Source of the DNA: Mycolicibacterium tusciae JS617
GTDB lineage: Bacteria; Actinomycetota; Actinomycetes; Mycobacteriales; Mycobacteriaceae
Length of the DNA stretch: 64,000 bases
Assembly: GCF_000243415.2 (NCBI RefSeq)
Contig: NZ_KI912270.1
Coordinates: forward strand, 3,348,001 to 3,412,000
Direction: 5' to 3'
Part shown: positions 122 through 29,750 of the stretch, piece by piece
Numbering within the stretch: the first letter of the stretch is position 1
Layout of the letters: every line of letters begins with the position of its first letter
The notes under the pieces: generated by a model
Seen by the model: only the letters and a program-made list of their open reading frames with translations
Databases searched by the model: none
Told to the model about the DNA's origin: nothing
Made by a program: the position numbers and the translations under genes

Positions 122-216
122 CACAGTGCGAATCGATTGCGGAAAGCCGACGTTAGACCGGAACACAACGCCTGCAGAATCGACATTTGGCACCTCCGAC
201 CGAGAGAATCTGCGCC

Positions 217-1398
217 GTGAGCCTTGAGCTGTTTCTTCTGATCATCGTCGTGATCACGGCGCTGGCATTCGACTTCACGAACGGCTTCCATGACACCGGT
301 AACGCGATGGCGGCCTCCATCGCCAGCGGCGCGCTCAAACCGAAGGCCGCCGTCACGATGTCGGCGGTGCTGAACCTGATCGGCGCTTTCCTGTCGACCG
401 CGGTCGCGGCGGCGATCGCCAAGGGACTGATCGAACCGGGGCTCGTCACGCTGGAGCTGGTATTCGCCGGCCTGGTGGGCGGCATCGTCTGGAACCTGCT
501 CACGTGGCTGTTGGGTCTGCCGTCCAGTTCGTCGCACGCGTTGATCGGCGGCATCGTCGGCGCGATGCTCGCCGCGGTCGGCGGACACGGCGTGATCTGG
601 GCCGGTCTGCTGTCCAAGGTGCTCGTTCCGGCTGTGCTGGCTCCGGTCATTGCGACGCTGGTCGCCAGCATCGGCACCTGGTTGGTGTACCGCATGGTGC
701 GTGGCGTCCCGGAGAAGCGCACGAATAGCGGTTTTCGCTACGGCCAGGTCGGCTCCGCCGCGCTGATCTCGCTTGCCCACGGCACCAATGACGCGCAGAA
801 GACGATGGGGGTCATTTTCCTGGCGCTGATCGCCTACGGCTCGGCCGCCGAGTCCGACCCGATGCCGCCGTTCTGGGTCATCTTTGCCTGCGCGGTGGCC
901 ATCGCATTGGGCACCTACCTCGGCGGCTGGCGCATCATCCGCACGCTCGGTAAGGGCCTTGTCGAAATCAAGCCGCCACAAGGGTTGGCCGCGGATTCGT
1001 CGTCGGCAACGATCATCCTGCTCTCCAGCCACTTCGGCTATTCGCTGTCCACCACCCACGTCGCCACCGGCTCGATCCTAGGCAGCGGGATCGGCAAAGC
1101 CGGCGCCGATGTGCGCTGGGGTGTGGCGGGCCGGATGGCCAGCGCCTGGTTGATCACCCTGCCCGCGGCGGGCACCGTCGGCGCCGCCATGTACTGGTTG
1201 GTGAATTCCATCGGCGGGTTCGTCGGTGCGACAGTCGGATTCCTGTTCCTTGCTGGTGTGTCGTTCATCATCTGGCTGCAGTCGCGCAAGACGCCGATCG
1301 ACCACAACAACGTCAACGACGAGTGGGAAGGCACCCTCGCGGCGGGCACTGGCGACCGCCAACCGTCGGTGACGTCCAAGACCCCAGAACCCGTTTAG
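217..1398 (+). CDS. pitA: Low-affinity inorganic phosphate transporter, PiT family
   Basis: Integral membrane phosphate permease of about 393 residues that imports phosphate, probably as a metal-phosphate complex driven by the proton gradient. The family signature appears twice: near the N-terminus as FDFTNGFHDTGNA, and in the second half as SLAHGTNDAQKTMG. These are the two inverted-repeat halves typical of PiT proteins. About ten hydrophobic segments are visible. A TTG at 187 would lengthen the protein, but the GTG at 217 (VSLELFLLI) matches the usual family N-terminus and is preferred. A short gene for a two-helix membrane protein and a DUF3349 gene follow in the same direction with small gaps, the arrangement seen at Rv0545c-Rv0543c in M. 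tuberculosis. Confidence 0.92.
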   Translation: MSLELFLLIIVVITALAFDFTNGFHDTGNAMAASIASGALKPKAAVTMSAVLNLIGAFLSTAVAAAIAKGLIEPGLVTLELVFAGLVGGIVWNLLTWLLGLPSSSSHALIGGIVGAMLAAVGGHGVIWAGLLSKVLVPAVLAPVIATLVASIGTWLVYRMVRGVPEKRTNSGFRYGQVGSAALISLAHGTNDAQKTMGVIFLALIAYGSAAESDPMPPFWVIFACAVAIALGTYLGGWRIIRTLGKGLVEIKPPQGLAADSSSATIILLSSHFGYSLSTTHVATGSILGSGIGKAGADVRWGVAGRMASAWLITLPAAGTVGAAMYWLVNSIGGFVGATVGFLFLAGVSFIIWLQSRKTPIDHNNVNDEWEGTLAAGTGDRQPSVTSKTPEPV

Positions 1399-1423
1399 CC
1401 GCCAGACACGAGAGGCCCGACAC

Positions 1424-1714
1424 GTGAACCAGTGGTTCAACTACACCGCCGCCCTGAAAATCCTCGGCTTCGGGCTCCTGATCGGGCCAGGGTTGCCCGC
1501 CCTGTTCGCGGTCGGGGTGCGGGTCAGTGCCAAAGGTGCCGGGGTCGCCGAGCGCAGCGGCGCCGTCGCGCAGAAGAGTCCGATGCTCGTCGCGCTCAGT
1601 TGGGCGTTGTTCGCGCTGGTGCTGCTGGCGGTCGTCCTCGGCGTCCTTTTCATCGCGCGTGACTTCATCGGCCACCAAAGCGGCCTGTACCTGCTTGGCG
1701 CAGAGCGCAAATAG
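1424..1714 (+). CDS. Small two-helix membrane protein (Rv0544c-like)
   Basis: A 96-residue protein starting at GTG 1424, 25 bp after pitA. Two hydrophobic segments are visible, roughly residues 10-32 and 53-76, separated by a short polar loop with Lys, Arg and Glu. No catalytic motif is seen. The gene lies between pitA and a DUF3349 gene, as the unnamed Rv0544c does in M. tuberculosis, so it may be co-transcribed with the phosphate transporter. Its role is unknown. Confidence 0.75.
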   Translation: MNQWFNYTAALKILGFGLLIGPGLPALFAVGVRVSAKGAGVAERSGAVAQKSPMLVALSWALFALVLLAVVLGVLFIARDFIGHQSGLYLLGAERK

Positions 1715-2032: not shown

Positions 2033-2306
2033 CCGTCCTGCGTCCCGTCTCCGTGCCGTCCGGAGCTTCGGCACTGTCGCTGCTGCCCGTGGTGGAAGAC
2101 GTGCTCGCCGGACGCACAACGATGTTACCGGTCCCGATGGACGACCAACGCGAAACCTCGCTGATCACAACAGCATTGCGGGCAGACTCAGAGATCGACG
2201 AGGATGTGGCTGTCGTGGTGTCGACCTCCGGCACGACAGGAACGCCGAAAGGCGCGATGCTGACGGCGTCGGCGTTGACGGCGAGCGCGTCAGCGACGCA
2301 CGACCG

Positions 2307-2315
2307 CCTCGGCGG
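2307..2315. repeat. 9-bp target-site duplication of the IS256-family insertion
   Basis: The sequence CCTCGGCGG at 2307-2315 is repeated at 3789-3797, directly outside the two ends of the element. Nine bases is within the usual 8-9 bp for IS256-family elements. Collapsing the two copies restores the menE frame. Confidence 0.88.
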
Positions 2316-3788
2316 GAGCATGTCCCGAGTCGCGTGGAATTTGGGTGACGATCCACGATGAACTCTAGGCGGCGGCACCGACAGATTTGGTGTCGGCGCC
2401 GGTGTCGGGGTGAGCGTGTCGGCGCAGGGCGTCGACGAGCTGGGGCATCTGCTTGTGGCCCTTGATGCGACGGAAGGATCGTTCGGCGTTGAGCATGCCG
2501 GCCGCGGTCCAGCGCAGCACCATCTGCCCGTCGCGCCAGCGGGTGACGTTGCGATTGGTGGTCCGGGCGATGGAGATCATCGACTCGACCGGATTGGACG
2601 TGGTCAACGTCTTGGCGAGGCGGCCGTCGATGCCGAGGCGGGCGACAGTGAACATTTCCTCCAGCCCCTCGCGCAGGCTGGCGGCCGCACTGGGATAGTT
2701 CTTACCAAGTTGCCCGGCAAGGCTTTTCGCGTTGCGCAACCCGGTGTCTGGGTCAGGGTGGGCGAAGGCCTTGACCAACTTGGCGTCCACCCAGGCCTTG
2801 TCCTTGTCGGGCAGATGATCAGCGACATTTCTCCGCTTGTGCAAGGTACATCTTTGGATGAGGGCCTTGGCGCCGAACACCTCACGCACCGCCGCGGACA
2901 GCGCCTTGGCGCCGTCGCAGACGACCAGCAGCCCATCGTCGATGGCCAGGCCGCGCTCGACCAGGTCGGCCAGCAGCGAGCGGACCACGGTCTTGTTCTC
3001 CGTGGAGCCGTCCCACAGCCCGACCGGGACCTTCGTTCCGTCGGCGGTGATCGCCAGCGCGACCACCACGCACCGCTGGGCCATGTGCTCCCCATCCAAC
3101 ATGAGCACCTTGATGTCCAGCTCGCTCAAGTCGCGGCTCATCAGCTCGCCCAGCGCGGTCTCGGTCTGGCGCACGAATCGGCGCGAAATCGCCGAGCGGC
3201 TAGTCGATTTCGCCTCCTCGCCGACCTGGGCGCCCACCGGCTCCGCAGTGCGGGCGTGCCGGCGGGTGGCCACCCCGGCCAGCATCCGCTCCATCACCAC
3301 CTGGGTCAGCAGGTCATCGGCGGCGAAGTGCGCATAGGTGCTCAGCGCCACCTCGCTCCCATCCAGAGTGCGTGCCCGCGGCCGGGCCACCGGCACCCGC
3401 CGACCACCAAGGGTCACCGACCCCTTCCCACTGCCGTGGCGCACCGAAATCCGGTCAGCGTCGTGCTTGCCCTTCGGCCCGCACGCCGCGGCGATCTCGG
3501 CCTCAAACATCGTCTGCATCACCGCCATCCCGGCGGCCACGCTCATCGCCAACAACCCCTCCCGGGCCGCCCCGGCGATGCTGGTCATCGCCAGCCGGAT
3601 CTCCTCCGGCAGCTCAGGCAACCCGGCGGCGTCGGTCGTGTCAGCGAGGCGAACAGTAGGTACGGTCTTCATGGCGGTCCCTTACTCCTTCTTCGAGGTG
3701 TACTTGGTCGTTCACCCGAAGACCTACCATCTGGCGGGCATCAGGTGAGGGACCGCCACCTCAAATTCCACGAAGACCGGGACAACCT
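2316..3788. mobile_element. IS256-family insertion sequence in menE
   Basis: This 1,473-bp element is inserted in menE and carries one transposase gene on the minus strand. Its ends are imperfect inverted repeats. Both contain GTCCCG a few bases in, followed by CGTGGAATTTG, on the left at about 2322-2347 and on the right in reverse complement at about 3756-3783. The flanking 9-bp duplication fixes the borders. The transposase frame is intact, so the element may still be active and the insertion looks recent. Confidence 0.88.
2365..3672 (-). CDS. IS256-family (mutator-type) transposase
   Basis: A 435-residue DDE transposase. The catalytic acidic residues are readable as Asp193 in LMLDGEHM, Asp253 in VVCDGAKAL and Glu363 in SNPVESMIS. 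Around Cys275 the motif RCTLHKRRNV is the conserved C-x(2)-H region of the mutator/IS256 superfamily. The protein moves the surrounding element by cut-and-paste or via a circular intermediate. The length is normal for the family and there is no frameshift. It is transcribed against menE. Confidence 0.93.
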   Translation of the reverse strand: MKTVPTVRLADTTDAAGLPELPEEIRLAMTSIAGAAREGLLAMSVAAGMAVMQTMFEAEIAAACGPKGKHDADRISVRHGSGKGSVTLGGRRVPVARPRARTLDGSEVALSTYAHFAADDLLTQVVMERMLAGVATRRHARTAEPVGAQVGEEAKSTSRSAISRRFVRQTETALGELMSRDLSELDIKVLMLDGEHMAQRCVVVALAITADGTKVPVGLWDGSTENKTVVRSLLADLVERGLAIDDGLLVVCDGAKALSAAVREVFGAKALIQRCTLHKRRNVADHLPDKDKAWVDAKLVKAFAHPDPDTGLRNAKSLAGQLGKNYPSAAASLREGLEEMFTVARLGIDGRLAKTLTTSNPVESMISIARTTNRNVTRWRDGQMVLRWTAAGMLNAERSFRRIKGHKQMPQLVDALRRHAHPDTGADTKSVGAAA

Positions 3789-4656
3789 CCTCGGCGGTGC
3801 CGGGCGGTGGCTGCTCGCCCTGCCCGCGCATCACGTGGCCGGCCTGCAGGTGCTGGTGCGCAGCGTCATCGCAGGGACGACCCCGGTGGCGATCTCCGCG
3901 GGATTCTCTGCGGCGGAGCTGGTTTCAGCCGTCAATTCCCTCGGCTCCGGGCGACGCTACGTCTCGTTGGTGGCCGCGCAGCTCGACAAGGCGCTGGGTG
4001 ATCCAGCCGCATCCGCCGCGTTGGCGTCGATGGACGCCGTGCTGATCGGCGGCGGTCCGATGCCAGCCGGCGTCGCCGAAAGAGCTTATTCTGCAGGTAT
4101 TTCCGTGGTCCGGACGTACGGAATGAGCGAGACTGCCGGTGGCTGCGTGTACGACGGACTGCCGCTGGGCGGGGTGCGTCTGCGTGTCGACGACGGACGG
4201 GTGGTGCTCGGCGGCGCAACAGTGGCCAAGGGCTACCGCAATCCCGTCGACCCGGATCCGTTTGTCGAGCCCGGCTGGTTTCGCACCGACGATGTTGGCG
4301 CAGTTGATGACTCGGGGATGCTGACGGTGCTGGGCCGGGTGGATGACGCGATCAGCACGGGTGGATTGACCGTGTTACCGCTACTGGTGGAGGCGGCGGT
4401 GGCCTCGCACGAGGCGGTGGCGGAATGTGTGGTGTTCGGCGTCGACGACGCACGGCTGGGTCAACGGGTCGTGGCGGCGATCGTGGTGACACCCGGACAT
4501 GCCGTCCCGACGCTGGCCGATATTCGCGCGCACGTCACAACGAGTCTGGACGTCACCGCGGCGCCGAGGGAGATTCACGTCGTCGACGAGATTCCGCGTC
4601 GCGGTATCGGCAAGGTGGACCGGCGAGCGCTGGCGGCCCGGTTCGGCGGCTAGTTC

Positions 4657-4822: not shown

Positions 4823-6046
4823 TCAAGCGGCGGCGGGCAGGCGGTGGGCCCAGGCGGTGTCTTCGTTATAGGGCGTGTGGTGGCGTAGGCAACCGTGCAG
4901 GATTCCGACGAGTCGGTTGGCCAGAGCGCGCAGTGCTTTGTGGTGGGTGTCGCCGGCGGCGCGGTGGTGGTCGTAGAAGGCGCGGGCACCGGGGCTGCAT
5001 TTGAGGGTGGCGAAGGCCCAGCGGTCGAGCGCGTCGTAGAGCCGTCGGTTACGCACGTGTCGGGCCAGGACGGCACGTTTTCGGCCAGAAGCCACGGTTA
5101 CCGGTGAGGTTCCGGCGTAGTTTTTGCGACACTTAGCGTCGGTGAATCGGTTCGGGTCGTCCCCGAACTCACCGAGCACCCGGGCGCCGAGGATGACACC
5201 GAGTCCTGGCAGGGAGAGGTAGATGTCGGCGTCCGGGTGCGTCCTAAAATGCTCAGCCAGTTCGGTTTCCACCGCGCTGATCTGATTGGTCAGCTCGACC
5301 ACGATGTTCACCGAGGCGCTGGTGGCGGCCCCGTAGGCTGCCGTCACGGCTGCAGGTGCGTGCAGCTGCTGGCCGCGCAGCAGGGCCTGGATCTCACGGG
5401 CGCGTTCATCGATACCGCGTTGGCGCCCACCCGCTTTGAGCGCTGCGGCGATCTTGCTCAGGCTTAGCCGGGCACCCTGACCCGGCGTGGGGGCACGGCC
5501 CAACACCGCCAGAGCATCGCGGTCGCGATCACGGTCGCCGAGATTGGGGAACGCCTGCAACGCCGCCGGGTAATACTCCAACAACCCCGCACGCAACATG
5601 CTGATCTGACGTGCTCGAGTCCAGATCAGATTCTGATGTGCCCGCGCCAACACCTTGATCGACTCGGCCTGATCGCTGTCTCCGACCAGAAGGCGATGGT
5701 TGTGCCGGTCGGTGCGTACCAGGTCGGCCAACAATTTCGCATCGGCGCCGTCGGATTTCGCGCCCGAGACGCTGTGTCGATCACGGTAACGGGCGACCGC
5801 CATCGGATTGATTGCATACACCTGATAGCCGCTGGCGGCCAACGCGCCCACCCACAGACCGTGGTCTTTCTCGATCCCCACGATCACCTCGCTGGGATCT
5901 TCGCCATGGGCAGCGATCATCTCGTGCAGCCGCCCGATACCGGTCAACCCTTCGGGGAGTCGCCGAGCCGCGAACCGAGCGCCCTCCTCATCCATCAAGT
6001 ACACGTCGTGATGGTCTTGGGCCCAGTCATCGCCGACAAACAACAT
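4823..6046 (-). CDS. IS110-family RuvC-like recombinase (transposase)
   Basis: A 407-residue DEDD-type transposase. The N-terminal RuvC-like domain begins MLFVGDDWAQDHHD with the first acidic residue, followed by GIEKDHGLWVGAL and KSDGADAKLLADLV. The C-terminal transposase_20 domain contains LPGLGVILGARVLGEFGDD and YAGTSPVTVASGRK, which includes the conserved serine. The ATG at 6046 is preferred over upstream in-frame codons because GGAAGGGTGAGGTG lies just before it. Known family members use a structured RNA from the noncoding end to choose target and donor DNA. Confidence 0.92.
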   Translation of the reverse strand: MLFVGDDWAQDHHDVYLMDEEGARFAARRLPEGLTGIGRLHEMIAAHGEDPSEVIVGIEKDHGLWVGALAASGYQVYAINPMAVARYRDRHSVSGAKSDGADAKLLADLVRTDRHNHRLLVGDSDQAESIKVLARAHQNLIWTRARQISMLRAGLLEYYPAALQAFPNLGDRDRDRDALAVLGRAPTPGQGARLSLSKIAAALKAGGRQRGIDERAREIQALLRGQQLHAPAAVTAAYGAATSASVNIVVELTNQISAVETELAEHFRTHPDADIYLSLPGLGVILGARVLGEFGDDPNRFTDAKCRKNYAGTSPVTVASGRKRAVLARHVRNRRLYDALDRWAFATLKCSPGARAFYDHHRAAGDTHHKALRALANRLVGILHGCLRHHTPYNEDTAWAHRLPAAA

Positions 6047-6062
6047 CACCTCACCCTTCCTC

Positions 6063-6095
6063 CTCGATCTGTGGTGGCACAGCCACCCTGTCGAG
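6063..6095 (-). ncRNA. Candidate bridge-RNA stem-loop of the IS110 element
   Basis: Within the noncoding sequence upstream of the IS110 recombinase, GGTGGC (6073-6078) pairs with GCCACC (6082-6087) over a 3-base loop. An outer stem CTCGA (6063-6067) pairs with TCGAG (6091-6095). IS110 elements are known to encode a bridge RNA from this end. Position and folding fit, but the programming loops were not identified, so this is inference. Confidence 0.35.
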
Positions 6096-6153
6096 CCTGA
6101 GGCACCCAGTTGCGACCTAATGGATAAGTGCTCGAATCGGCACGACATCCCAG

Positions 6154-6425
6154 TAGCACTACAGGTGGCCACCAACTGGCCGGGGCGCGATCTCTACAGT
6201 AGGAATCAACGACCGTTCCAGGTTGGCAAAGTGCTCACCGGCCAGCGGCTCACCCAATCAGCGTCTCGCCAACACCCTCGAAAGTTCGCCAACGACGCGC
6301 CGATCAAATCCCATTAGGTTGGCAGCCAGAAGGTCGAGGTGGCTCAGACGTCGAAGCGTTACACCTTCAGGGTCTGGCATCAAATGGCGTCGCACAAATG
6401 AACTTCAGGCGAGCATGATGTAGCC
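6154..6425. other. Intergenic, no gene recognised
   Basis: Together with the noncoding end of the IS110 element, this makes a gene-free stretch of about 380 bp between the recombinase and the PPOX-family gene. I see no convincing coding frame, RNA gene or strong hairpin in 6154-6425. The promoter of the following gene must lie here, but no box is clear. Confidence 0.5.
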
Positions 6426-17732: not shown

Positions 17733-19405
17733 TTGGGACTGAGCCGGGTGGGTTTGTTCGAGGCGATCCGCCGGGACGCCCGTTGGGAAGAGCTTTCGGT
17801 TCGGGCGTTGGCGAAGCGCTATGGGGTGCATCGGCGGACGGTGCGGCAGGCGTTGGGGTCACCGGTGCCGCCGCCGCGGAAGTCACGCGTCCGGGTGGCG
17901 CCGAAACTGGATCCGGTGAAGCCGTTGATCGATGCGATGCTGCGTGAGGATTTGACCGCCCCGCGCAAGCAGCGTCACACCGCCCGGCGGGTGCTGGCCC
18001 GCCTGGTCGATGAGCATGGCGTCGGCGATATCACCTATTCGACGGTGCGCGATTACGTGCGTGCGCGTCGGGTGGAGATCAACGCTGAGGCCGGTCGATG
18101 CGTGGAGGAGGCGTTCGTGCCGCAGAGCCATGACCCCGGCGCCGAGGCTGAGGTGGATTTCGCCGATTTGTGGATCGATCTGAAAGGCTTGCGCACCAAG
18201 GTTTTTCTGTTCACCCTGCGACTGTCGTACTCGGGCAAGGCGGTGCACCGGGTGTTTGCCTCTCAGGGGCAGGAGGCGTTTCTAGAGGGCCATGTGTACG
18301 CGTTTGACCGCCTGGGCGGGGTGCCGATCACACATATCCGTTACGACAACCTGAAGTCCGCGGTGTCGCGGGTTCTGTTGGGGCGCAACCGTATCGAGTC
18401 GGAGCGGTGGGTGCTGTTCCGATCGTGGTACGGCTTTGAGGCGTTCTACTGCGAGCGCGGGCTGCACGGCGCCCACGAGAAGGGCGGGGTGGAGGGCGAG
18501 GGCGGCCGGTTCCGGCGCACCCACCTTGTCCCGGTGCCTCGGGTGGACAGTCTGGATGAGCTGAACGAGCGGCTGGCCGGCTACGACGAGGCCGACGATT
18601 TCCGCCGGATCGGTAACCGGGCCGCCACGGTGGGGCAGGATTTCGCGACTGAGCAGCCGCTGCTGCGGCCGCTGCCGGTCGAGCCGTTCGAGCCGGGCCT
18701 GACACTGACCGCACGCGTCGACCGCTACGCCCAGGCGACCGTGCGTACCTGCCGTTACTCCGTGCCGGTGCGGTTGATCGGGCGGCGGGTGCGGGTGCTG
18801 CTGCGCGCCAGCGAGTTGCTGATCTTCGACGGCGCGCCCAGATCGCCCGCCACCAGCGGTGCACCACCAAGGGCGGCTCGGTGCTGCTGCTGGATCACTA
18901 CCTGGAGGTGCTGGCCCGCAAACCCGGCGCGCTGCCGGGCTCGACCGCGCTGGCCCAAGCCCGCCAGTGCGGCGGGTTCACCGCCGCGCACGACGCGTTC
19001 TGGGCGGCCGCGCGCGCCCGGCTCGGCGATTCCGCCGGCACCCGCGCGTTGATCGAGGTGCTGTTGCTGCACCGCCACATGCACCATGCCGACGTGGTCG
19101 CCGGGCTCATCGCTGCGGGCACGGTCGGGGCCAGCAGCGCCGACGTGGTCGCGGTGGAGGCCCGCAAGGCCGCCGACCGATCCCGCGACGGCACCGTTCC
19201 CGCGCCGAGACCGACGCCCTGGGCTGGTGAGCCGGTGGTGAGCCTGACCCAGCGGCGCCTGGCCGACCCGGCCGCGGTGATCGCCGGGCTGCCCGCCGAT
19301 CACCGCCCACCGCCGTCGGTGAGCGCCTACGACGAACTGCTGCCGCGGCGCCGCGCGAGCTCCGAATCCGCGAAAGTCAAGCAGCACAAGGGAACCGCGT
19401 TATGA
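17733..19405 (+). pseudogene. istA: istA transposase with a one-base deletion
   Basis: IstA is the DDE transposase of IS21 elements. The N-terminal helix-turn-helix (SVRALAKRYGVHRRTVRQAL) and the DDE domain with EVDFADLW, RYDNLKSAV and HEKGGVEGE are intact. Near 18830-18838 (GGCGCGCC) the frame is lost. The expected continuation, RAQIARHQRCTTKGG then LLLDHYLEVLARKPG, is in another frame that runs to the stop at 19405. One added base would give 558 codons. Either the gene is dead, the element relies on frameshifting, or there is a sequencing error in a GC-rich run. Confidence 0.85.
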
Positions 19406-20205: not shown

Positions 20206-20513
20206 CCACCGAGCCGGCCCCGCACAGCGCAGACGACACCTTCGACCTCATCGACGACGCCGTCGCCGCGCTCGCGCAGCGCCGTCGAGTCAACCTCTGC
20301 GACGACGTCACCACCATCGCATTGCTCGCCAGCCTCATCGAACAGGCCCAACGATGCCTACCCCAACTCGTCCACGACGCCCGCCACAACGGCCACACCT
20401 GGATCCAGATCGCCCAAGCACTCGGCACCAACCCCGACGAAGCACACCTGCGGTTCGACCCCGAATCACCAATCGCCGACGGCAGATGGCCCTACAACAG
20501 CGACCAACCCTGA
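20202..20513 (+). CDS. Small third gene of the IS21 element
   Basis: A 103-residue protein whose ATG overlaps the istB stop codon (ATGA), so it is translated with the transposition genes. The middle is helical ([24 protein letters not shown]) and is followed by [12 protein letters not shown], which resembles a helix-turn-helix. It lies inside the element, upstream of the right end. Function unknown; it may modulate transposition or be a passenger. Confidence 0.65.
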
Positions 20514-20604
20514 TGACCCCCACACCGAGCGCCTCGACACATCATCCCCGGGGTGGGGCCAAATATCTCCGTCACTCCGGGGCCACTTTGAGTTGACACA
20601 GCCA

Positions 20605-22635
20605 TAACGCCCGAGGAAGCCGGTCGCCCCGGTCAACAGGACCGTCCGCACCTCAGGCCTGGGAGCCGGCAGTGTCCGGGCGGCGTTCAGCGTGGGCGTA
20701 TCGAGGAATTTGTCCAATGTGAGGTCAGCAGCGCGCACCTCGGTGGCGTGGGAACCGTGGACTGCCACAAAGCGCGGGTCGGTGACGTAGTTGTGCAGCT
20801 GTTGGCTCAATTGCGCGATGGTGGGTGCGGTGAACAGAGTGCGCACGTTGAGGTGGGTGTTCAGGGATTTGTTGATTGCCGCGATCAGGCGCATCGCTGA
20901 TAGTGAGTCTCCGCCGAGGTCGAAGAAGGAGTCATCGACTCCGACCCGGGCCAACCCGAGTACCTGAGCGTAGATGCCGGCCAAGACCTCCTCGACCGCC
21001 GAACCCGGGGCGCGATAAGGACTTTCCTGATACTGCGGGGCCGGCAGCGCCCGAGTATCGAGCTTGCCGTTGGCAGTCAACGGCAACGCATCGATCACCA
21101 CCACCGCCGCGGGAACCATATAGGCCGGCAACCGCTCACCTAGCCGCGCGCGGATCTCGACGGGATCAGCAGTGCCGGTGAGATACCCCACCAACCGCTT
21201 ATCACCGGGGCGGTCCTCCCGCACGATCACCACCGCCGCGCTAACCCCCTGCAGCGCGGCCAACGCAGCCTGCACCTCGCCCAGTTCGATGCGATACCCG
21301 CGGATCTTGACCTGCTCATCAGCACGCCCCAGATACTGCAACTGCCCATCAGCACCCCAGCGCACCAAATCCCCAGTGCGATACATCCGTTGACCGGACA
21401 CCCCGAACGGACACGCCACAAACCGCGACCCCGTCAACCCCGCCCGACCCAGATAACCGACCCCCAACCCATGACCGGCGGCATACAGTTCACCGACCAC
21501 CCCGACCGGCACCGGCCGCAACCACCCATCCAAAACAAACAACGCCGCCCCCGGCACCGGCGCGCCGATCGACGGTGTCCCCGAACCCGGCGCCAACGGC
21601 GCACTGACCGTCACACACATCGTCGTCTCGGTCGGCCCATAAGCGTTGGTCATCAACCGCCCCGGCGCCCACCGATCCACCAACTCCGCCGAACAGGCCT
21701 CCGCCGCCACCACCAACGCCGTGGCCTCCAACACCTGCGGCGACAACGCCGAGAGCGCCGAGGGAGTCTGGTGCAACACACTGACTTGTTCCTCGACCAG
21801 CAACGCCTGCAAATCCTCGGACACCGAGGCCACCTCTTCGGGCACCACCAACAGCCGAGACCCATGCAACAACGCACCCCAGATCTCTTCGACCGAGGCG
21901 TCAAACGCATACGAATACCACTGCGACCACACCTGACCTGGCCCCGAAGGCATCCCCACATGCAACAACGCCAGCCACTGGGTCACATTGTGATGAGTGG
22001 TCCCCACCCCCTTGGGAACACCGGTGGTGCCCGAGGTGTAGACGATGTGGGCGATATCGTCGCCGGCTGGCACCGGCAACCCCGTAACCGGCTGCGCGCC
22101 AACGGCTTCATCAGCCACATCGACGACCACCACCGGATACCCGTCAAACCGCGACGCCAGTTCGGCAGTACTGACCGCCACCACCGGCGCAGCATCACCC
22201 ATCATGAACTCGATCCGCGCATCAGGCACCACCGGATCCATCGGCAAATACGCCGCCCCCGACTTGAGCACAGCCAAAATCGCGACGATCGCCTCCGCCG
22301 ACCGCGAAAACAGCAAACGCCACACACTGGCCAGGACCCGCCCCATACCCAACCAACAAGTGCGCCAACCGATTAGCGTTCTCGTCCAACTCCCGATACG
22401 TCCACGACCGCCCCAAACAACTAACAGCCACCGCCTCAGGAGTACGAGCCACCTGCGCAGCGAACAACTCCGGAATCGACACCCCCACAGGCACAGGCTC
22501 AGCCAACACCGCCCGATTACCAATCAGATCCAAACGCGCATGCTCACCAACATCAACCACATCGACCGCCGACAACCGCCGCAACGGATCACCAACCATC
22601 GCCACCAACACCCGCTGCAACCGATCAACCAACGC
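20605..22635 (-). pseudogene. NRPS fragment 3: A domain (frameshifted), T domain, start of Red domain
   Basis: Between the second IS3 site and the IS21 element lie an adenylation (A) domain with [12 protein letters not shown], the specificity region [22 protein letters not shown] and [12 protein letters not shown], a carrier (T) domain with [12 protein letters not shown], and the first Rossmann motif of the reductase ([10 protein letters not shown]). One extra A in CAAACG near 22314, compared with CAACG in the twin copy at 26780, breaks the frame early in the A domain. The residues lining the pocket are the same as in fragment 2. Confidence 0.88.
20812..22514. repeat. 1.7-kb A-T segment, near-identical to 25277-26978
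   Basis: The segment matches 25277-26978 at a constant offset of 4,465 bp, with a single-base indel near 22314 as the only difference found by eye. Overlapping reading frames on both strands translate identically in the two copies, which supports identity at the nucleotide level. A further 590 bp (about 31430-32017) is a third copy with about three mismatches. Confidence 0.88.
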
Positions 22636-23934
22636 TGGCGTGCCCTCTGTTCTCCGGACTGCGGACCAAATAGGGTCCGACTGGAAAGGATGAACGGCAT
22701 TGGCGAAGAAATATCAGAAGTTCTCACCGGAGTTTCGGGAGGAAACGGCCCGACTGGTGGTGGACGGGCAGAAGTCCATCGCCGAGGTCGCGCGCGAACA
22801 CGGGCTCAGTGATACCACTGTCGGCAACTGGGTTCGGAAGTATCGAGAAACGCATGCCACCGACGAGCCGCCGCTGGAATTATCTGAACGTGCTCGGCTG
22901 CGTGAATTGGAACGCGAGAACCGAGAAATGGCGATGGAACTCGACCTTCTTAAAAAAAGCAGCAGCGTACTTCGCGAAGGAGCCACGGTGAGCCAGAAAT
23001 ACGCGTTCATCGCCGCGGAGCACGCTGACGGTGCCACCTTTGCGGGCATGGCTCCCACGATCGTGCAGATGCTGAAATGGCTGGGGGTGTCGAAATCGGG
23101 GTTCTACGAGTGGTGGGGCCGGCCGGCGAGTGCGGCGATGTGCCGCCGCGAGGAACTCAAGCTCAAGATCGCCGCACTGTTCACGTCTTTCGGCGCCGTG
23201 TACGGGTATCGGCGCATCCACGCCGAGTTGGTCCGCGCCGGTGAACGGGTAGGCCCAGAGTTGGTGCGCACACTGATGCGCGAGTTGAATCTCGTTGCAC
23301 TGCAACCGAAACCTTACAAGCGGACCACTATCGCCGGCGAGTCCGCCACCGCGGTGCCTGATCTGGTGGCCCGTGACTTCACCGCGGATCGGCCCGGGGT
23401 GAAGCTGGTCGGTGACATCACCTATATCCGGACCTGGGCTGGGTGGCTGTATTTGGCGACCGTGATCGACTGCTTCAACAAAGAAGTGATCGGTTACGCG
23501 ATGGCCGATCACATGCGTACCGAGCTGGTCACCGGCGCCCTGGAGATGGCTGCCCGCAACCACGCCCTGGAACCGGGATGCATTATGCACACCGACCGCG
23601 GGACGCAATACACCTCGACCGATTACGCCATTAAAATCGCCGACCTTGATATGAGAGCCTCGCTGGGGCGGACCGGAATATGTTGGGATAACGCGCTCGC
23701 AGAATCATTCTTTGCAGCCCTGAAAAATGAACGTGTGCACCACATGGTGTATCCGACGCGGAAGAAAGCAAGAGCTGATATTGCCCGCTATATCGAACTG
23801 TTCTATAATCGGCGCAGACTTCACTCCGCGTTGGGCTACCGCACGCCGCATGAAGTCCGCATCGAATACATGAATTCACAGCTCGCGGCATAATTCCCGC
23901 GAAATCCGCAGTCCTAAAAGCGCGGAGCAGGCCA
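22636..23934. mobile_element. IS3-family element, copy 1
   Basis: This 1,299-bp element begins TGGCGTGCCC and ends GGAGCAGGCCA. Its imperfect inverted repeats share TGGC at the tip and GGACTGCGGA further in. The 3-bp duplication CGC (22633-22635 and 23935-23937) shows a simple insertion. The uninterrupted target sequence can be read at 30020-30035 in the paralogous module. It sits in the linker between a C domain and an A domain of the NRPS. Confidence 0.9.
22700..23893 (+). CDS. IS3-family transposase, OrfA and OrfB fused in one frame
   Basis: A 397-residue protein starting at TTG 22700. The OrfA part has a helix-turn-helix ([20 protein letters not shown]) and a leucine-zipper-like helix ([16 protein letters not shown]). 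The OrfB part has the DDE core with GDITYIRTWAGWLYLATVID, MHTDRGTQYTS and a final glutamate in DNALAESFFAALKNE. Normally OrfA and OrfB are joined by a -1 frameshift at the A7 run (22952-22958). Here an extra A in CTCGACC, compared with CTCGCC in copy 2, puts them permanently in one frame. The fusion segment [14 protein letters not shown] differs from the normal [14 protein letters not shown]. Confidence 0.88.
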   Translation: MAKKYQKFSPEFREETARLVVDGQKSIAEVAREHGLSDTTVGNWVRKYRETHATDEPPLELSERARLRELERENREMAMELDLLKKSSSVLREGATVSQKYAFIAAEHADGATFAGMAPTIVQMLKWLGVSKSGFYEWWGRPASAAMCRREELKLKIAALFTSFGAVYGYRRIHAELVRAGERVGPELVRTLMRELNLVALQPKPYKRTTIAGESATAVPDLVARDFTADRPGVKLVGDITYIRTWAGWLYLATVIDCFNKEVIGYAMADHMRTELVTGALEMAARNHALEPGCIMHTDRGTQYTSTDYAIKIADLDMRASLGRTGICWDNALAESFFAALKNERVHHMVYPTRKKARADIARYIELFYNRRRLHSALGYRTPHEVRIEYMNSQLAA

Positions 23935-26900
23935 CGCCTCGATGGTCGCGGCATCAAACACATCAGTACGGAACTCCACCGCACCGCAGATCCCGGCCAG
24001 CACACCATCGTCAGTCCAACGCTCACCCAGCGAAAATGTCAGGTCCATGCGGGCGGCCTTGGCCTGCAACGGCATCGGGGCAATCTGCAGATCCCCAAGA
24101 TCCAACATCGAAGCGGGCGCGTGGTGCCCCGCAAGGTTCTGCCAGGTCAATCCCACCTGGACCAGCGGGTGGTGACTCAACGATCGAATTGGGTTGAGCC
24201 GTTCCACCAGCAGCTCAAAGGGCACGTCCTGGTGATCGAGGCCCTCCAGGCTGCGGGCCCGGACCTGGGCCAACAGATCACCGACAGTGGGATCGCCGCC
24301 GACGTCAACGCGCAGCACCAAGGTGTTGACGAAGAAACCCACCAGCTCTTCGAGGGCCAGGTCGCTCCGACCGGCGACCGCGAAACCCACCGCCACATCA
24401 GCACAGGCGCTGATCTTGGACAGCAACACCGCCAGGGCGGCCTGCACCACCATAAAGCTGGTCGCGTTGTGCTCACGAGCCACCGCGCGTATCCGCTGCT
24501 GCAACTCGGCCGGCCAATCCACGGCCACAGTGGCCCCACCGTAACCGGCAACCTGCGGATAGGGCCGATCAGTCGGCAACACCAGCCGCTCGGGCATCCC
24601 CGCCAGAGTCTGCTGCCAATAGGCCAACTGGACGCCGATCGGACTTTCGCTGTCATCGAGATCACCGAACTGGGTCCGTTGCCACAATGCGTAATCGGCG
24701 TACTGCACCGGCAATGAATCCCAACCGGGGGCCCGCCCCCTACACCGGCCGGCATAAGCCACGCTTAGATCAGCCACCAGCGGGGTCAGCGACCAGCCAT
24801 CAGCGGCGATATGGTGCACCACAGCCGCCAACACATGCTCATCCTCAGCAACGCTGAAGAGCCATGCCCGCAAAGGGATTTCGGTCGCCAAATCAAAGGT
24901 GTGGCGCGCAGCGACTCCGATCGCCTCAGCCAACTGATCCTGCGGCCATGCGATGGCATCGACAACCTCCCAGCCGAAGTCCGCCCGCTCGGGCGCCACC
25001 ACCTCCTGATACGGCACACCATCGCTGTCGGGGAATATGGTGCGCAGCGATTCGTGGCGGCCCACCACATCGGCCAACGCCGCAGACAGCGCGTCGACGT
25101 CAAGCCGCCCACGCATACGCAACGCCACCGCCATGTTGAAAACCGGCGAGGGGCCCTGCAACTGCTCAAGGAACCACAACCGCCCTTGACCAAACGACAA
25201 CGGAATCACCGCAGGACGCTCACCAGCCACAAGCGGCTCGAGCCCACCGACTTCCGTCCGGAGACGCGGCGCGATCTGCGCGATGGTGGGTGCGGTGAAC
25301 AGAGTGCGCACGTTGAGGTGGGTGTTCAGGGATTTGTTGATTGCCGCGATCAGGCGCATCGCTGATAGTGAGTCTCCGCCGAGGTCGAAGAAGGAGTCAT
25401 CGACTCCGACCCGGGCCAACCCGAGTACCTGAGCGTAGATGCCGGCCAAGACCTCCTCGACCGCCGAACCCGGGGCGCGATAAGGACTTTCCTGATACTG
25501 CGGGGCCGGCAGCGCCCGAGTATCGAGCTTGCCGTTGGCAGTCAACGGCAACGCATCGATCACCACCACCGCCGCGGGAACCATATAGGCCGGCAACCGC
25601 TCACCTAGCCGCGCGCGGATCTCGACGGGATCAGCAGTGCCGGTGAGATACCCCACCAACCGCTTATCACCGGGGCGGTCCTCCCGCACGATCACCACCG
25701 CCGCGCTAACCCCCTGCAGCGCGGCCAACGCAGCCTGCACCTCGCCCAGTTCGATGCGATACCCGCGGATCTTGACCTGCTCATCAGCACGCCCCAGATA
25801 CTGCAACTGCCCATCAGCACCCCAGCGCACCAAATCCCCAGTGCGATACATCCGTTGACCGGACACCCCGAACGGACACGCCACAAACCGCGACCCCGTC
25901 AACCCCGCCCGACCCAGATAACCGACCCCCAACCCATGACCGGCGGCATACAGTTCACCGACCACCCCGACCGGCACCGGCCGCAACCACCCATCCAAAA
26001 CAAACAACGCCGCCCCCGGCACCGGCGCGCCGATCGACGGTGTCCCCGAACCCGGCGCCAACGGCGCACTGACCGTCACACACATCGTCGTCTCGGTCGG
26101 CCCATAAGCGTTGGTCATCAACCGCCCCGGCGCCCACCGATCCACCAACTCCGCCGAACAGGCCTCCGCCGCCACCACCAACGCCGTGGCCTCCAACACC
26201 TGCGGCGACAACGCCGAGAGCGCCGAGGGAGTCTGGTGCAACACACTGACTTGTTCCTCGACCAGCAACGCCTGCAAATCCTCGGACACCGAGGCCACCT
26301 CTTCGGGCACCACCAACAGCCGAGACCCATGCAACAACGCACCCCAGATCTCTTCGACCGAGGCGTCAAACGCATACGAATACCACTGCGACCACACCTG
26401 ACCTGGCCCCGAAGGCATCCCCACATGCAACAACGCCAGCCACTGGGTCACATTGTGATGAGTGGTCCCCACCCCCTTGGGAACACCGGTGGTGCCCGAG
26501 GTGTAGACGATGTGGGCGATATCGTCGCCGGCTGGCACCGGCAACCCCGTAACCGGCTGCGCGCCAACGGCTTCATCAGCCACATCGACGACCACCACCG
26601 GATACCCGTCAAACCGCGACGCCAGTTCGGCAGTACTGACCGCCACCACCGGCGCAGCATCACCCATCATGAACTCGATCCGCGCATCAGGCACCACCGG
26701 ATCCATCGGCAAATACGCCGCCCCCGACTTGAGCACAGCCAAAATCGCGACGATCGCCTCCGCCGACCGCGAAAACAGCAACGCCACACACTGGCCAGGA
26801 CCCGCCCCATACCCAACCAACAAGTGCGCCAACCGATTAGCGTTCTCGTCCAACTCCCGATACGTCCACGACCGCCCCAAACAACTAACAGCCACCGCCT

Positions 26901-26978
26901 CAGGAGTACGAGCCACCTGCGCAGCGAACAACTCCGGAATCGACACCCCCACAGGCACAGGCTCAGCCAACACCGCCC
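23935..26978 (-). pseudogene. NRPS fragment 2: A, T and C domains
   Basis: This fragment lies between the two IS3 copies. In reading order it has an A domain ([50 protein letters not shown]), a T domain (LGGDSLSAM) and a condensation (C) domain with the active-site motif [11 protein letters not shown]. The frame is open throughout and runs on through both IS borders (to about 27012), so an A-T-C protein could in principle still be made from a TTG in the IS end. The aspartate of FDAS and the glutamate three residues after its alanine suggest an amino acid with a basic side chain, such as an ornithine derivative. Confidence 0.88.
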
Positions 26979-27042
26979 TGGCGTGCCCTCTGTTCTCCGG
27001 ACTGCGGACCAAATAGGGTCCGACTGGAAAGGATGAACGGCA

Positions 27043-27333
27043 TTGGCGAAGAAATATCAGAAGTTCTCACCGGAGTTTCGGGAGGAAACGGCCCGACTGG
27101 TGGTGGACGGGCAGAAGTCCATCGCCGAGGTCGCGCGCGAACACGGGCTCAGTGATACCACTGTCGGCAACTGGGTTCGGAAGTATCGAGAAACGCATGC
27201 CACCGACGAGCCGCCGCTGGAATTATCTGAACGTGCTCGGCTGCGTGAATTGGAACGCGAGAACCGAGAAATGGCGATGGAACTCGCCTTCTTAAAAAAA
27301 GCAGCAGCGTACTTCGCGAAGGAGCCACGGTGA
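27043..27333 (+). CDS. IS3-family OrfA
   Basis: A 96-residue helix-turn-helix protein, starting at TTG 27043, with the C-terminal coil [21 protein letters not shown]. It ends just past a seven-A run (27294-27300) that should serve as the -1 slippery site joining it to OrfB, which starts four bases before its stop. This is the normal version of the gene, against which the fusion in copy 1 can be seen. Confidence 0.9.
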
Positions 27334-28234
27334 GCCAGAAATACGCGTTCATCGCCGCGGAGCACGCTGACGGTGCCACCTTTGCGGGCATGGCTCCCAC
27401 GATCGTGCAGATGCTGAAATGGCTGGGGGTGTCGAAATCGGGGTTCTACGAGTGGTGGGGCCGGCCGGCGAGTGCGGCGATGTGCCGCCGCGAGGAACTC
27501 AAGCTCAAGATCGCCGCACTGTTCACGTCTTTCGGCGCCGTGTACGGGTATCGGCGCATCCACGCCGAGTTGGTCCGCGCCGGTGAACGGGTAGGCCCAG
27601 AGTTGGTGCGCACACTGATGCGCGAGTTGAATCTCGTTGCACTGCAACCGAAACCTTACAAGCGGACCACTATCGCCGGCGAGTCCGCCACCGCGGTGCC
27701 TGATCTGGTGGCCCGTGACTTCACCGCGGATCGGCCCGGGGTGAAGCTGGTCGGTGACATCACCTATATCCGGACCTGGGCTGGGTGGCTGTATTGGCGA
27801 CCGTGATCGACTGCTTCAACAAAGAAGTGATCGGTTACGCGATGGCCGATCACATGTGTACCGAGCTGGTCACCGGCGCCCTGGAGATGGCTGCCCGCAA
27901 CCACGCCCTGGAACCGGGATGCATTATGCACACCGACCGCGGGACGCAATACACCTCGACCGATTACGCCATTAAAATCGCCGACCTTGATATGAGAGCC
28001 TCGCTGGGGCGGACCGGAATATGTTGGGATAACGCGCTCGCAGAATCATTCTTTGCAGCCCTGAAAAATGAACGTGTGCACCACATGGTGTATCCGACGC
28101 GGAAGAAAGCAAGAGCTGATATTGCCCGCTATATCGAACTGTTCTATAATCGGCGCAGACTTCACTCCGCGTTGGGCTACCGCACGCCGCATGAAGTCCG
28201 CATCGAATACATGAATTCACAGCTCGCGGCATAA
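27330..28234 (+). pseudogene. IS3-family OrfB with a one-base deletion
   Basis: OrfB carries the DDE integrase core. The frame breaks near 27795, where TGTATTGGCG replaces TGTATTTGGCG of copy 1. The first part ends WAGWLYWRP, and the second part (from about 27785, LATVIDCFNKEVIGYAMADH) continues in another frame to the usual C-terminus NSQLAA. One added base would give 302 codons. Copy 2 therefore probably cannot move by itself, but copy 1 could supply the enzyme. Confidence 0.88.
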
Positions 28235-28247
28235 TTCCCGCGAAATC

Positions 28248-29714
28248 GGCTCTTCGATTTTGAGCGGGCAATCAGCATGATGTCTGGGTTGCGGCCCGCT
28301 GTTTGCGGGTGCAGTGGAAGCGTATCCGGCGGGCCGAGTTTTCTGTGTTTCTGAACCCGCACGCTGTGCGTTTGACCTGCTTGACGAGCCGGTTGTAGCC
28401 CTCGGTGCCGGCGTTGGTGATGCCGGTGGCGATGAAGGCGTTGATCTCGGGCCACCAGGTGTCCACGGTGGTGGCCAGGGTCAGCAGCTCCGGGATCTGC
28501 GAATCGATGCACCAGGACAGGAACCGGTGCAGGCGGTGCCGGGTCAGGTGCGGGTCGCCGCCGACGCGCACGGTGGACAGCAGGGTGCGCAGTTCTTCCT
28601 TGGCGATCCACGCTGAAAGGATCTGACCGGTGTCGTCAGCGGCGATGAGGGCGTTCCACATTTTGGCGAAACTCTTGCCCGACAGGCGTTCCCGAGCGCG
28701 CAGCAACCGTCGCCGGTTGGCCCATTCCGGGTCGATCTTGCGACCACGACGCTCACGTAGATCCCAGGTGACCCGTTGACGCACCTTGGTCACCGCGTCG
28801 TTGCCGAGCTTCACCAGGTGGAAGTGATCGACCACGATCGTCGCGTTGGGCAACAAGCCGGGTGTGCGGATCGCTGTCGCGTAGACCGCGGCCGGGTCGA
28901 TGGCCACGTAGGCCACGCCCGCGCGGAAGGCTTCGGTGCGCTCAGAGAGCCAGTCGATGACCGCTGCGCCGGTGCGGCCTTCCCGTTGCCCCAGCAGGCC
29001 CTGATCGCCGGCCAGGTCGACGAACCCGGTGTCCCACGGGTCCACCCGCACCCACCCCTGCGTCACCGCGCAGTGTTCCCACCTGGGCTTTCCGCGGCGG
29101 GTCTCATCGATGCCCAGCACCGCGGTGGGCTGCGGTTCGACTAGCAGCGACTCGGCGTGGGCGACGAACGCGCGGTGCGCGGTCGGCCACGACACGCCGT
29201 GGCTGTTTGCGACCTCGGCCACAGAACGGGCCGCATCCCCGATCGCCGCACCGACCTGAGTGCGCAACCGCAGAGTTGTGCGGGCCCGCGCCGGCACCTG
29301 CGCGATGGACTCGGTGAAGGACCCGCGTTCACAGTAGTCCTCCCGGCAACGCCACCGGGTCTTGTGCCACCGCAGCATGATTCGCGCTTCACCGTAGGGG
29401 ATATCCTTCGGTGCGGTGGCGACTCGGGCCTTCACCGAGGTGGACAACACCCCACACGACGGGCACGCCGCCGCGGACTCGCTCGCGGTCACCGCGTGCA
29501 CTACTCGCGTCCCGTCGGCCCAGCGCTCGACACGCTCAACCCGCACTCCTGGCAGCCCAAACAACAATGTCGTACCGTCGGACACGGCCCTTGGTTCCCT
29601 TCGTCAGCCTGAATGCTTCGCAACTTTCAGACTTCGGAAGACCAAGGGCCTCCCCATGCAGCGACACGCCCTACGAGAGCGAAATCACAACTGCCCCATT
29701 AAAATCGAAGAGCC
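28248..29714. mobile_element. ISL3-family element nested in IS3 copy 2
   Basis: This 1,467-bp element starts GGCTCTTCGATTTT and ends with the complement AAAATCGAAGAGCC. The 8-bp duplication GCGAAATC (28240-28247 and 29715-29722) is the standard length for the ISL3 family. It lies in the last 40 bp of IS3 copy 2, after the orfB stop. Its transposase gene is intact. Confidence 0.92.
28272..29585 (-). CDS. ISL3-family transposase
   Basis: A 437-residue transposase. The N-terminal zinc finger has CPSCG and a later pair of cysteines (RWRCREDYCERG). It is followed by a helix-turn-helix (SVAEVANSHGVSWPTAHRAF). The DDE core shows VLGIDETRRGKPRW, the aspartates of VAIDPAAVY and VVDHFHLVKL, and a C-terminal acidic residue in NAGTEGYNRLVK. 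The length is normal for the family and the frame is complete, so the element may be active. Confidence 0.93.
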   Translation of the reverse strand: MSDGTTLLFGLPGVRVERVERWADGTRVVHAVTASESAAACPSCGVLSTSVKARVATAPKDIPYGEARIMLRWHKTRWRCREDYCERGSFTESIAQVPARARTTLRLRTQVGAAIGDAARSVAEVANSHGVSWPTAHRAFVAHAESLLVEPQPTAVLGIDETRRGKPRWEHCAVTQGWVRVDPWDTGFVDLAGDQGLLGQREGRTGAAVIDWLSERTEAFRAGVAYVAIDPAAVYATAIRTPGLLPNATIVVDHFHLVKLGNDAVTKVRQRVTWDLRERRGRKIDPEWANRRRLLRARERLSGKSFAKMWNALIAADDTGQILSAWIAKEELRTLLSTVRVGGDPHLTRHRLHRFLSWCIDSQIPELLTLATTVDTWWPEINAFIATGITNAGTEGYNRLVKQVKRTACGFRNTENSARRIRFHCTRKQRAATQTSC

Positions 29715-29750
29715 GCGAAATCCGCAGTCCTAAAAGCGCGGAGCAGGCCA

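What the first reader, a model, noticed from the sequence alone, without database searches (positions are those of the whole stretch)
2053..4653. menE, a menaquinone-pathway gene, is split by an intact IS256-family element
The insertion has a perfect 9-bp duplication and the joined gene has exactly 373 codons, so it was functional until recently. Mycobacteria depend on menaquinone, so the strain needs another MenE, another acyl-CoA ligase that can replace it, or a mixed population with an intact allele. The downstream part retains the rest of the enzyme and could be made separately.
Basis: partly seen in the sequence, partly recalled or inferred. Interest (0 to 1): 0.75.

Follow-up and report, generated by a model that had tools for sequence, protein, structure and literature searches.

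The report
Transposon-interrupted menE gene in a mycobacterium
A recently arrived jumping DNA element has cut the only recognisable menE gene (one step of vitamin K2 synthesis) of a mycobacterium in two; this is an ordinary kind of mutation in an unexpected gene, and it makes testable whether these bacteria can live without an intact MenE.

Summary
An ISMyo1-like IS256-family element (2316-3789, 1474 bp) lies inside menE (2053-4653). The other copies show that the target duplication is 8 bp (CTCGGCGG), not 9: 10 of 11 copies in the genome have 8 bp. The insertion is young: 7 of 11 copies are identical, and a 1474/1474-identical copy sits in another genome of the genus. The gene pieces carry no other stop and show purifying selection. 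No second MenE was found: the next matches in the genome fall below both MenE model cut-offs, and 0 of 33 readable ligase stretches have the basic residue shared by the MenE proteins compared. menA, menB, menC, menD and menG are intact. The split separates the ATP-binding loop (left) from the later motifs (right), so the right piece alone should be inactive. How the strain lives is open: conditional dispensability (hinted at by M. tuberculosis TnSeq, PMC7058343), a promiscuous ligase, a reassembled split enzyme, or an intact allele missing from the assembly. Known kind of event; moderate interest.

The parts
2053..2315 (+). menE left piece (87 codons and 2 bases), holds the ATP-binding loop; its open frame runs on into the element to TGA 2359-2361 (102 aa)
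   Evidence: NF005877 positions 1-82, 107.8 bits; ORF list
2221..2256 (+). ATP-binding (P-loop, A3) motif STSGTTGTPKGA
   Evidence: sequence; T58-G63 and P65-G67 invariant in 19 of 19 intact MenE; the name A3 is recalled
2308..2315 (.). target duplication, left copy CTCGGCGG
   Evidence: 11-copy comparison
2316..3789 (-). IS256-family element, ISMyo1-like, 1474 bp
2316..2343 (.). left terminal inverted repeat
   Evidence: inverted pair I1, 76% complementary without gaps; gapped alignment
2365..3672 (-). transposase, 435 aa
   Evidence: NF033543 214.1 bits, PF00872 131.4 bits
3762..3789 (.). right terminal inverted repeat
3745..3747 (+). GTG inside the element, in frame with the right piece; start of the 302-aa predicted protein P0001
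3790..3797 (.). target duplication, right copy CTCGGCGG
3798..4653 (+). menE right piece with Arg109 (3859-3861), YGMSET and the GIGK lysine
   Evidence: NF005877 positions 82-362, 431 bits; conserved columns
187..1398 (+). phosphate transporter gene upstream of menE
   Evidence: PF01384 289.6 bits
1721..2032 (+). DUF3349 gene directly upstream of menE
   Evidence: PF11829 108 bits
44456..45331 (+). menA, intact
   Evidence: NF004751 424.9 bits, TIGR00751 368.7 bits

Best explanation
Shown: an ISMyo1-like IS256-family element, present in 11 nearly identical copies, inserted by ordinary transposition into codon 88 of the only recognisable menE of this genome, duplicating 8 bp. Inferred: it was acquired and multiplied recently. 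Inferred: the insertion parts the ATP-binding loop from the rest of MenE, so that neither piece alone holds a complete active site, and MenE activity in the sequenced strain is lost or strongly reduced. Inferred, and the least certain step: the strain could still be grown and sequenced because an intact MenE is conditionally dispensable in this background, most likely through low-level activation of o-succinylbenzoate by one of its many other acyl-CoA ligases. It is a young lesion, not an old adaptation: the other pathway genes looked at are intact.
For: Element, ends and 8-bp duplications in 10 of 11 copies. Relatives' loci without an insertion there: 79 of 79 with both parts. Recency: 7 of 11 copies identical, 2 with one mismatch, 2 slightly longer; 1474/1474 identity with a copy in genome G087, one of 3 of 148 genomes of the genus (G000 included) with a transposase match at E <= 1e-180. 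Single menE; no MqnC over cut-off, so no sign of the futalosine route. Purifying selection on both pieces. Other pathway genes intact. Dispensability hint: M. tuberculosis TnSeq lists rv0542c (menE) and rv0548c (menB) among genes not essential with cMBT or MBT as iron source (PMC7058343, passages); [quoted passage not shown]
Against: menE is kept in the genus: 384 of 396 genomes have a match over the MenE cut-off (G000 through its right piece alone), and the other 12 are drafts, so it does not look lastingly dispensable. MenE is called essential in B. subtilis (PMC11619455, passages). No ligase stretch read in this genome has the MenE-type basic residue (0 of 33), which argues against a ready substitute, promiscuous ones included. 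The TnSeq paper itself warns that pooled mutants can be cross-complemented, said there of mbt genes, and it finds menE needed with hemin. Nothing here measures menaquinone, expression or the living culture.
Confidence: 0.6

Rival explanations
1. Split but working enzyme: the left piece (102 aa with a short element-coded tail) and the right piece (302 aa from GTG 3745 in the element) are made separately and reassemble into an active MenE.
For: Both frames are open and have possible starts. The split lies at a place where lengths differ: the 5x8f/5buq chains (2-succinylbenzoate--CoA ligase; B. subtilis by recall) have 2 more residues there. Split firefly luciferase, of the same superfamily, is used as a reassembling reporter (recalled).
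Against: No promoter-like site was found at 2200-4000 (a sigma-70 consensus scan only), and the sequence before GTG 3745 has no strong ribosome site by eye. The split falls in a conserved stretch (R85, L86, G87, G88, G90, W92 invariant in 19 of 19). The left piece is small and ends in unrelated residues. No structure could be predicted to test it.
Confidence: 0.15
2. Unresolved intact allele: the culture is mixed, or menE lies in a duplicated segment of which one copy is intact, and the assembly shows only the interrupted one.
For: It would explain growth without new biochemistry. In one relative, Mycobacterium sp. IS-3022, the record holds the menE locus twice, as two identical 8873-bp stretches on one contig in opposite orientation. 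Precise excision of IS256 and phase variation by it are reported in Staphylococcus (only reference titles of Ziebuhr 1999 and Hennig 2008 seen, in PMC5065196).
Against: The genome is 4 contigs with a 6.95-Mb contig, so most sequenced DNA probably carries the insertion (inference). No intact allele of this strain was found among public proteins: the nearest full-length ones are 91% identical, a 255-aa partial one 93% (8000 candidates scored, 120 listed).
Confidence: 0.25
3. A dedicated replacement ligase: the 517-aa acyl-CoA ligase encoded in the same men neighbourhood (G000:C4:3346151-3347704, here called LigX), or another top scorer, took over the MenE step before the insertion.
For: LigX lies between an SDR gene and the transporter/menE genes; an orthologue of 66-90% identity is in 21 of 80 relatives' loci, M. 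tusciae at 90%; it is third best against TIGR01923 (292.8 bits).
Against: It is below the 330 cut-off and has Val, not Arg/Lys, at the Arg109 position. All 80 loci were fetched by their menE, so they cannot show whether LigX owners lose menE; that was not surveyed.
Confidence: 0.1

Closest known systems
ISMyo1 (IS256 family; annotated on plasmids of M. intracellulare subsp. yongonense 05-1390 and M. avium)
   Same: nearly whole-length match (query 6-1474), same family
   Different: 80.9% DNA identity, so a separate element; an IS256-family copy on a M. dioxanotrophicus plasmid is nearer in that collection at 83.2%, and a fully identical copy is in G087
Mycobacterial MenE (o-succinylbenzoate--CoA ligase, NF005877; M. 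tuberculosis Rv0542c)
   Same: the two pieces cover the model end to end; DUF3349 lies directly upstream as in most relatives' loci
   Different: interrupted in codon 88; no intact copy elsewhere in the genome
menE-defective small colony variants of Staphylococcus aureus
   Same: loss of the same pathway step in bacteria that otherwise respire with menaquinone (recalled; the papers were seen only in a search listing)
   Different: S. aureus can ferment (recalled); no phenotype is known for this strain

Membership tests
IS256 family insertion sequence | transposase of the Mutator/IS256 family over the curated cut-off | tested here: met
   NF033543 214.1 bits (cut-off 150); PF00872 131.4 bits (cut-off 21)
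IS256 family insertion sequence | 8-9 bp target duplication (length range recalled) | tested here: met
   8 bp in 10 of 11 copies, none in 1
IS256 family insertion sequence | imperfect terminal inverted repeats | tested here: met
   29-nt arms, 76% complementary ungapped; better with gaps
IS256 family insertion sequence | DDE catalytic residues | not tested
   no residue-level check made
MenE, o-succinylbenzoate--CoA ligase (NF005877) | match over the curated cut-off along the whole model | tested here: inconclusive
   right piece alone is over the cut-off (431 against 345), left piece 107.8; together they cover positions 1-362 but are interrupted
MenE, o-succinylbenzoate--CoA ligase (NF005877) | basic residue at the Arg109 position (role in binding the substrate carboxylate recalled) | tested here: met
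   Arg at 3859-3861; invariant in 19 of 19 mycobacterial MenE, Arg in E. coli MenE, Lys in the 5x8f/5buq MenE chains
LigX as a MenE | score over the TIGR01923 or NF005877 cut-off | tested here: not met
   TIGR01923 292.8 of 330; with NF005877 its stretches score 91.4 and 48.6 of 345
Futalosine menaquinone pathway | MqnC over cut-off | tested here: not met
   best 332.2 against 428.1, inside an 884-aa frame, read here as an F420-synthesis enzyme (that reading is inference)

The most novel reading that the evidence does not exclude
The strain makes menaquinone without an intact MenE: either the element has turned MenE into a working two-piece enzyme whose second piece starts from an initiation codon supplied by the element, or o-succinylbenzoate activation in mycobacteria is redundant through a ligase that does not look like MenE. 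Either would change how safe MenE is as a drug target.
Probability: 0.3. Interest if true: 0.65.

Novelty: new member of a known kind. Interest (0 to 1): 0.35.

Why it matters
MenE is pursued as an antibacterial target in mycobacteria (PMC5874750, passages) and called essential in B. subtilis (PMC11619455, passages), while what I saw on M. tuberculosis is mixed. A genome of the genus whose only recognisable menE is split gives a ready-made test of whether the step can be bypassed. It also shows how one young insertion sequence, shared with another genome without a single base change, can hit a core respiratory gene.

Tried and rejected
Second menE elsewhere, all 4 contigs included: not found. 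Futalosine pathway: no support (MqnC only). Naming the strain through its plasmids failed (contig C3 was not searched). Intact allele of the same strain or species among public proteins: not found, nearest full-length 91%.

Other mycobacteria with broken menE: 12 of 396 genomes were below the cut-off (identified by me from the E-values), all drafts of 30-1110 contigs. I re-searched 11 low scorers: 5 of those 12 (G089, G134, G139, G257, G307) and 6 that pass it (G041, G100, G221, G351, G385, G386). G134 has an N gap inside the gene. G307 has a chorismate-synthase/shikimate-kinase-like stretch running in frame into menE in a 590-contig draft, which I read as an assembly join without testing it. 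G089 shows menE in three different reading frames, so it may be a second broken menE or a draft error; I did not settle this. G139 and G257 show no menE piece and stay unexplained. In G386 and G221 the frame is whole with extra residues, G100 has a run of 394 N, and G041, G351 and G385 are cut near the ends of the stretch held. The other 7 of the 12 (G008, G126, G260, G278, G287, G305, G311) were not examined. A match over the cut-off does not prove an intact gene.

The structure of the intact M. tusciae MenE could not be predicted, so the remark that the split lies in a loop-like place rests on one alignment length difference. Six papers found with 'menE', smegmatis, transposon and essential genes were opened and were surname matches. 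I first took the target duplication as 9 bp and found duplications in only 3 of 11 copies with those ends; shifting the end by one base gave 8 bp in 10 of 11.

The Arg109 test reads 33 ligase stretches; one search listed 85 matches (several per protein, NRPS domains included), so some ligases were not read. Rows with more than 10 gaps in the compared stretch, or with a stretch identical to one already read, were dropped. An earlier version with a stricter filter read 15, 0 basic.

Full report
What is there. The window is C4:3348001-3412000 of a 7.31-Mb, 4-contig genome rated 100% complete. At 2053-4653 lies menE in two pieces: the left piece matches the mycobacterial MenE model NF005877 at positions 1-82 and the right piece at positions 82-362. 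Between them is an IS256-family element with its transposase on the minus strand (2365-3672; NF033543 214.1 bits, PF00872 131.4 bits). In relatives the site is empty: of 80 loci fetched by the right piece, 79 hold both parts, 3 or 6 bases apart and in one frame; the eightieth (L052) starts too close to the match to hold the left part.

Exact ends. The window alone suggests a 9-bp duplication. The genome holds 11 copies of the element at 95% protein identity or more. Comparing them shows the common ends GAGCATGTCCCG...CGGGACAACCTC; the element is 1474 bp in 9 copies and 1476 or 1477 bp in 2, and 10 of 11 copies are flanked by an 8-bp duplication; the exception (L027) has none. In menE the duplication is CTCGGCGG, and the ninth base is a chance match. 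The insertion lies in codon 88 (from GTG 2053), in a stretch (R85, L86, G87, G88, G90, W92) that is invariant in 19 of 19 intact mycobacterial MenE.

Age. Seven copies are identical and two differ by one base. The same 1474 bp, without a difference, occurs with its own 8-bp duplication in another genome of the genus, G087. G087's second copy lies at nearly the same position (C4:10939-12219) as the IS256 copy of M. dioxanotrophicus plasmid NZ_CP020812 (10887-12339), so G087 is probably that species (inference). Only 3 of 148 genomes examined, G000 included, have a transposase match at E <= 1e-180. The nearest named element is ISMyo1, 80.9% identical in DNA. The menE pieces show no other in-frame stop, and Ka/Ks is 0.19 (left) and 0.10 (right) against M. 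tusciae, and 0.13-0.23 and 0.09-0.13 against three other relatives, close to the neighbouring SDR and ligase genes (0.13-0.19). menE shows higher Ks than those neighbours (0.61-0.70 against 0.37-0.44 with M. tusciae), which I cannot explain. All of this says the insertion is young.

Is there another MenE? With NF005877 the only match over the cut-off in the whole genome is the right piece (439.6 bits); the next is 132.4. With TIGR01923 nothing passes 330.15; the best is 306.9. The right piece's other matches score 85.6 bits or less, against 593.9 for itself, and are 38% identical or less where they cover most of it. A residue test: Arg109 is invariant in 19 of 19 mycobacterial MenE, is Arg in E. 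coli MenE and Lys in the MenE chains 5x8f and 5buq (B. subtilis by recall); of 33 other ligase stretches of this genome that could be read, 0 have Arg or Lys there. That this residue binds the substrate carboxylate is recalled, not from a call. No MqnC passes its cut-off. menB, menC, menD, menG and menA are intact; the other pathway genes were not looked at.

Can the pieces work? The left frame gives 102 aa ending in 14 element-coded residues; the right frame could start at GTG 3745 inside the element and give 302 aa, which is how the protein database holds it. The ATP-binding loop (2221-2256) is in the left piece; Arg109, YGMSET and the GIGK lysine are in the right. Adenylation needs both (ANL superfamily, recalled), so the right piece alone should be inactive. 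No promoter-like site was found in 2200-4000. Element plus duplication is 494 codons, so one frame runs through with a single TGA at 2359; a read-through fusion is conceivable but improbable, and open antisense frames are common in GC-rich genes (recalled).

How common is a broken menE? In 396 genomes of the genus, 384 have a match over the cut-off (G000 counts only through its right piece); the 12 others are drafts. I re-searched 11 low scorers, 5 of them among those 12. G134 has an N gap, G307 looks like an assembly join, G139 and G257 show no menE piece, and in G089 menE reads in three different frames, so a second broken menE is possible there. The other 7 of the 12 were not examined. In the loci I read I saw no other insertion sequence in menE; one search printed only the best matches, so the genus has not been read through for it.

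Is menE essential? In print: menD is essential in all data sets compared and menA, menB and menC in M. bovis; menE is not named as essential in that passage (PMC8739905, passage). MenE is essential in B. subtilis but not in E. coli (PMC11619455, passages). In M. [quoted passage not shown] A 2026 preprint notes mixed reports and low vulnerability of the pathway, and also states that the pathway is essential in mycobacteria (PMC12919086, passages). So growth with a split menE is surprising but not excluded.

Verdict. A real, recent, ordinary transposition into the only recognisable menE of a mycobacterium. What remains open, and gives it some interest, is how the strain respires; read mapping and a menaquinone measurement would settle most of it.

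Noticed in passing
L171:16151-17704 (G000:C4:3346151-3347704): A 517-aa acyl-CoA ligase gene (LigX) sits in the men neighbourhood between an SDR gene and the transporter/menE genes; an orthologue (66-90% identity) is in 21 of 80 relatives' loci; substrate unknown.
   Followed up: partly
L048 and L049 (Mycobacterium sp. IS-3022, one contig): The menE locus occurs twice on one contig as two identical 8873-bp stretches in opposite orientation: a real duplication or an assembly artefact.
   Followed up: partly
L147 (genome G089), 1474-2429: menE reads in three different frames towards its 3' end: a second broken menE or a draft error.
   Followed up: partly
window 187-1714 compared with L041 and L043-L064: The phosphate-transporter stretch before menE differs among relatives: same strand in this genome and many other loci, a ~58%-identical gene on the opposite strand in many others, and not detected in the M. 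tusciae locus.
   Followed up: no
window 4823-6175 and 17733-19052: An IS110-family transposase gene directly after menE and an IS21-family transposase further on; with the IS256 element the region is rich in insertion sequences.
   Followed up: no
window 20466-34411: Large minus-strand frames with adenylation-domain matches, probably non-ribosomal peptide synthetase genes.
   Followed up: no
L146 (genome G307) 1291-2091: A shikimate-kinase-like start runs in frame into about the C-terminal half of menE; read as an assembly join in a 590-contig draft, not tested.
   Followed up: partly
L144 (G386) and L145 (G221): menE with extra residues inside an otherwise whole open frame (465 and 420 aa).
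   Followed up: no
L027 (G000:C4, copy near 4953287-4954588): The one IS copy of 11 without a target duplication, suggesting recombination between copies.
   Followed up: no
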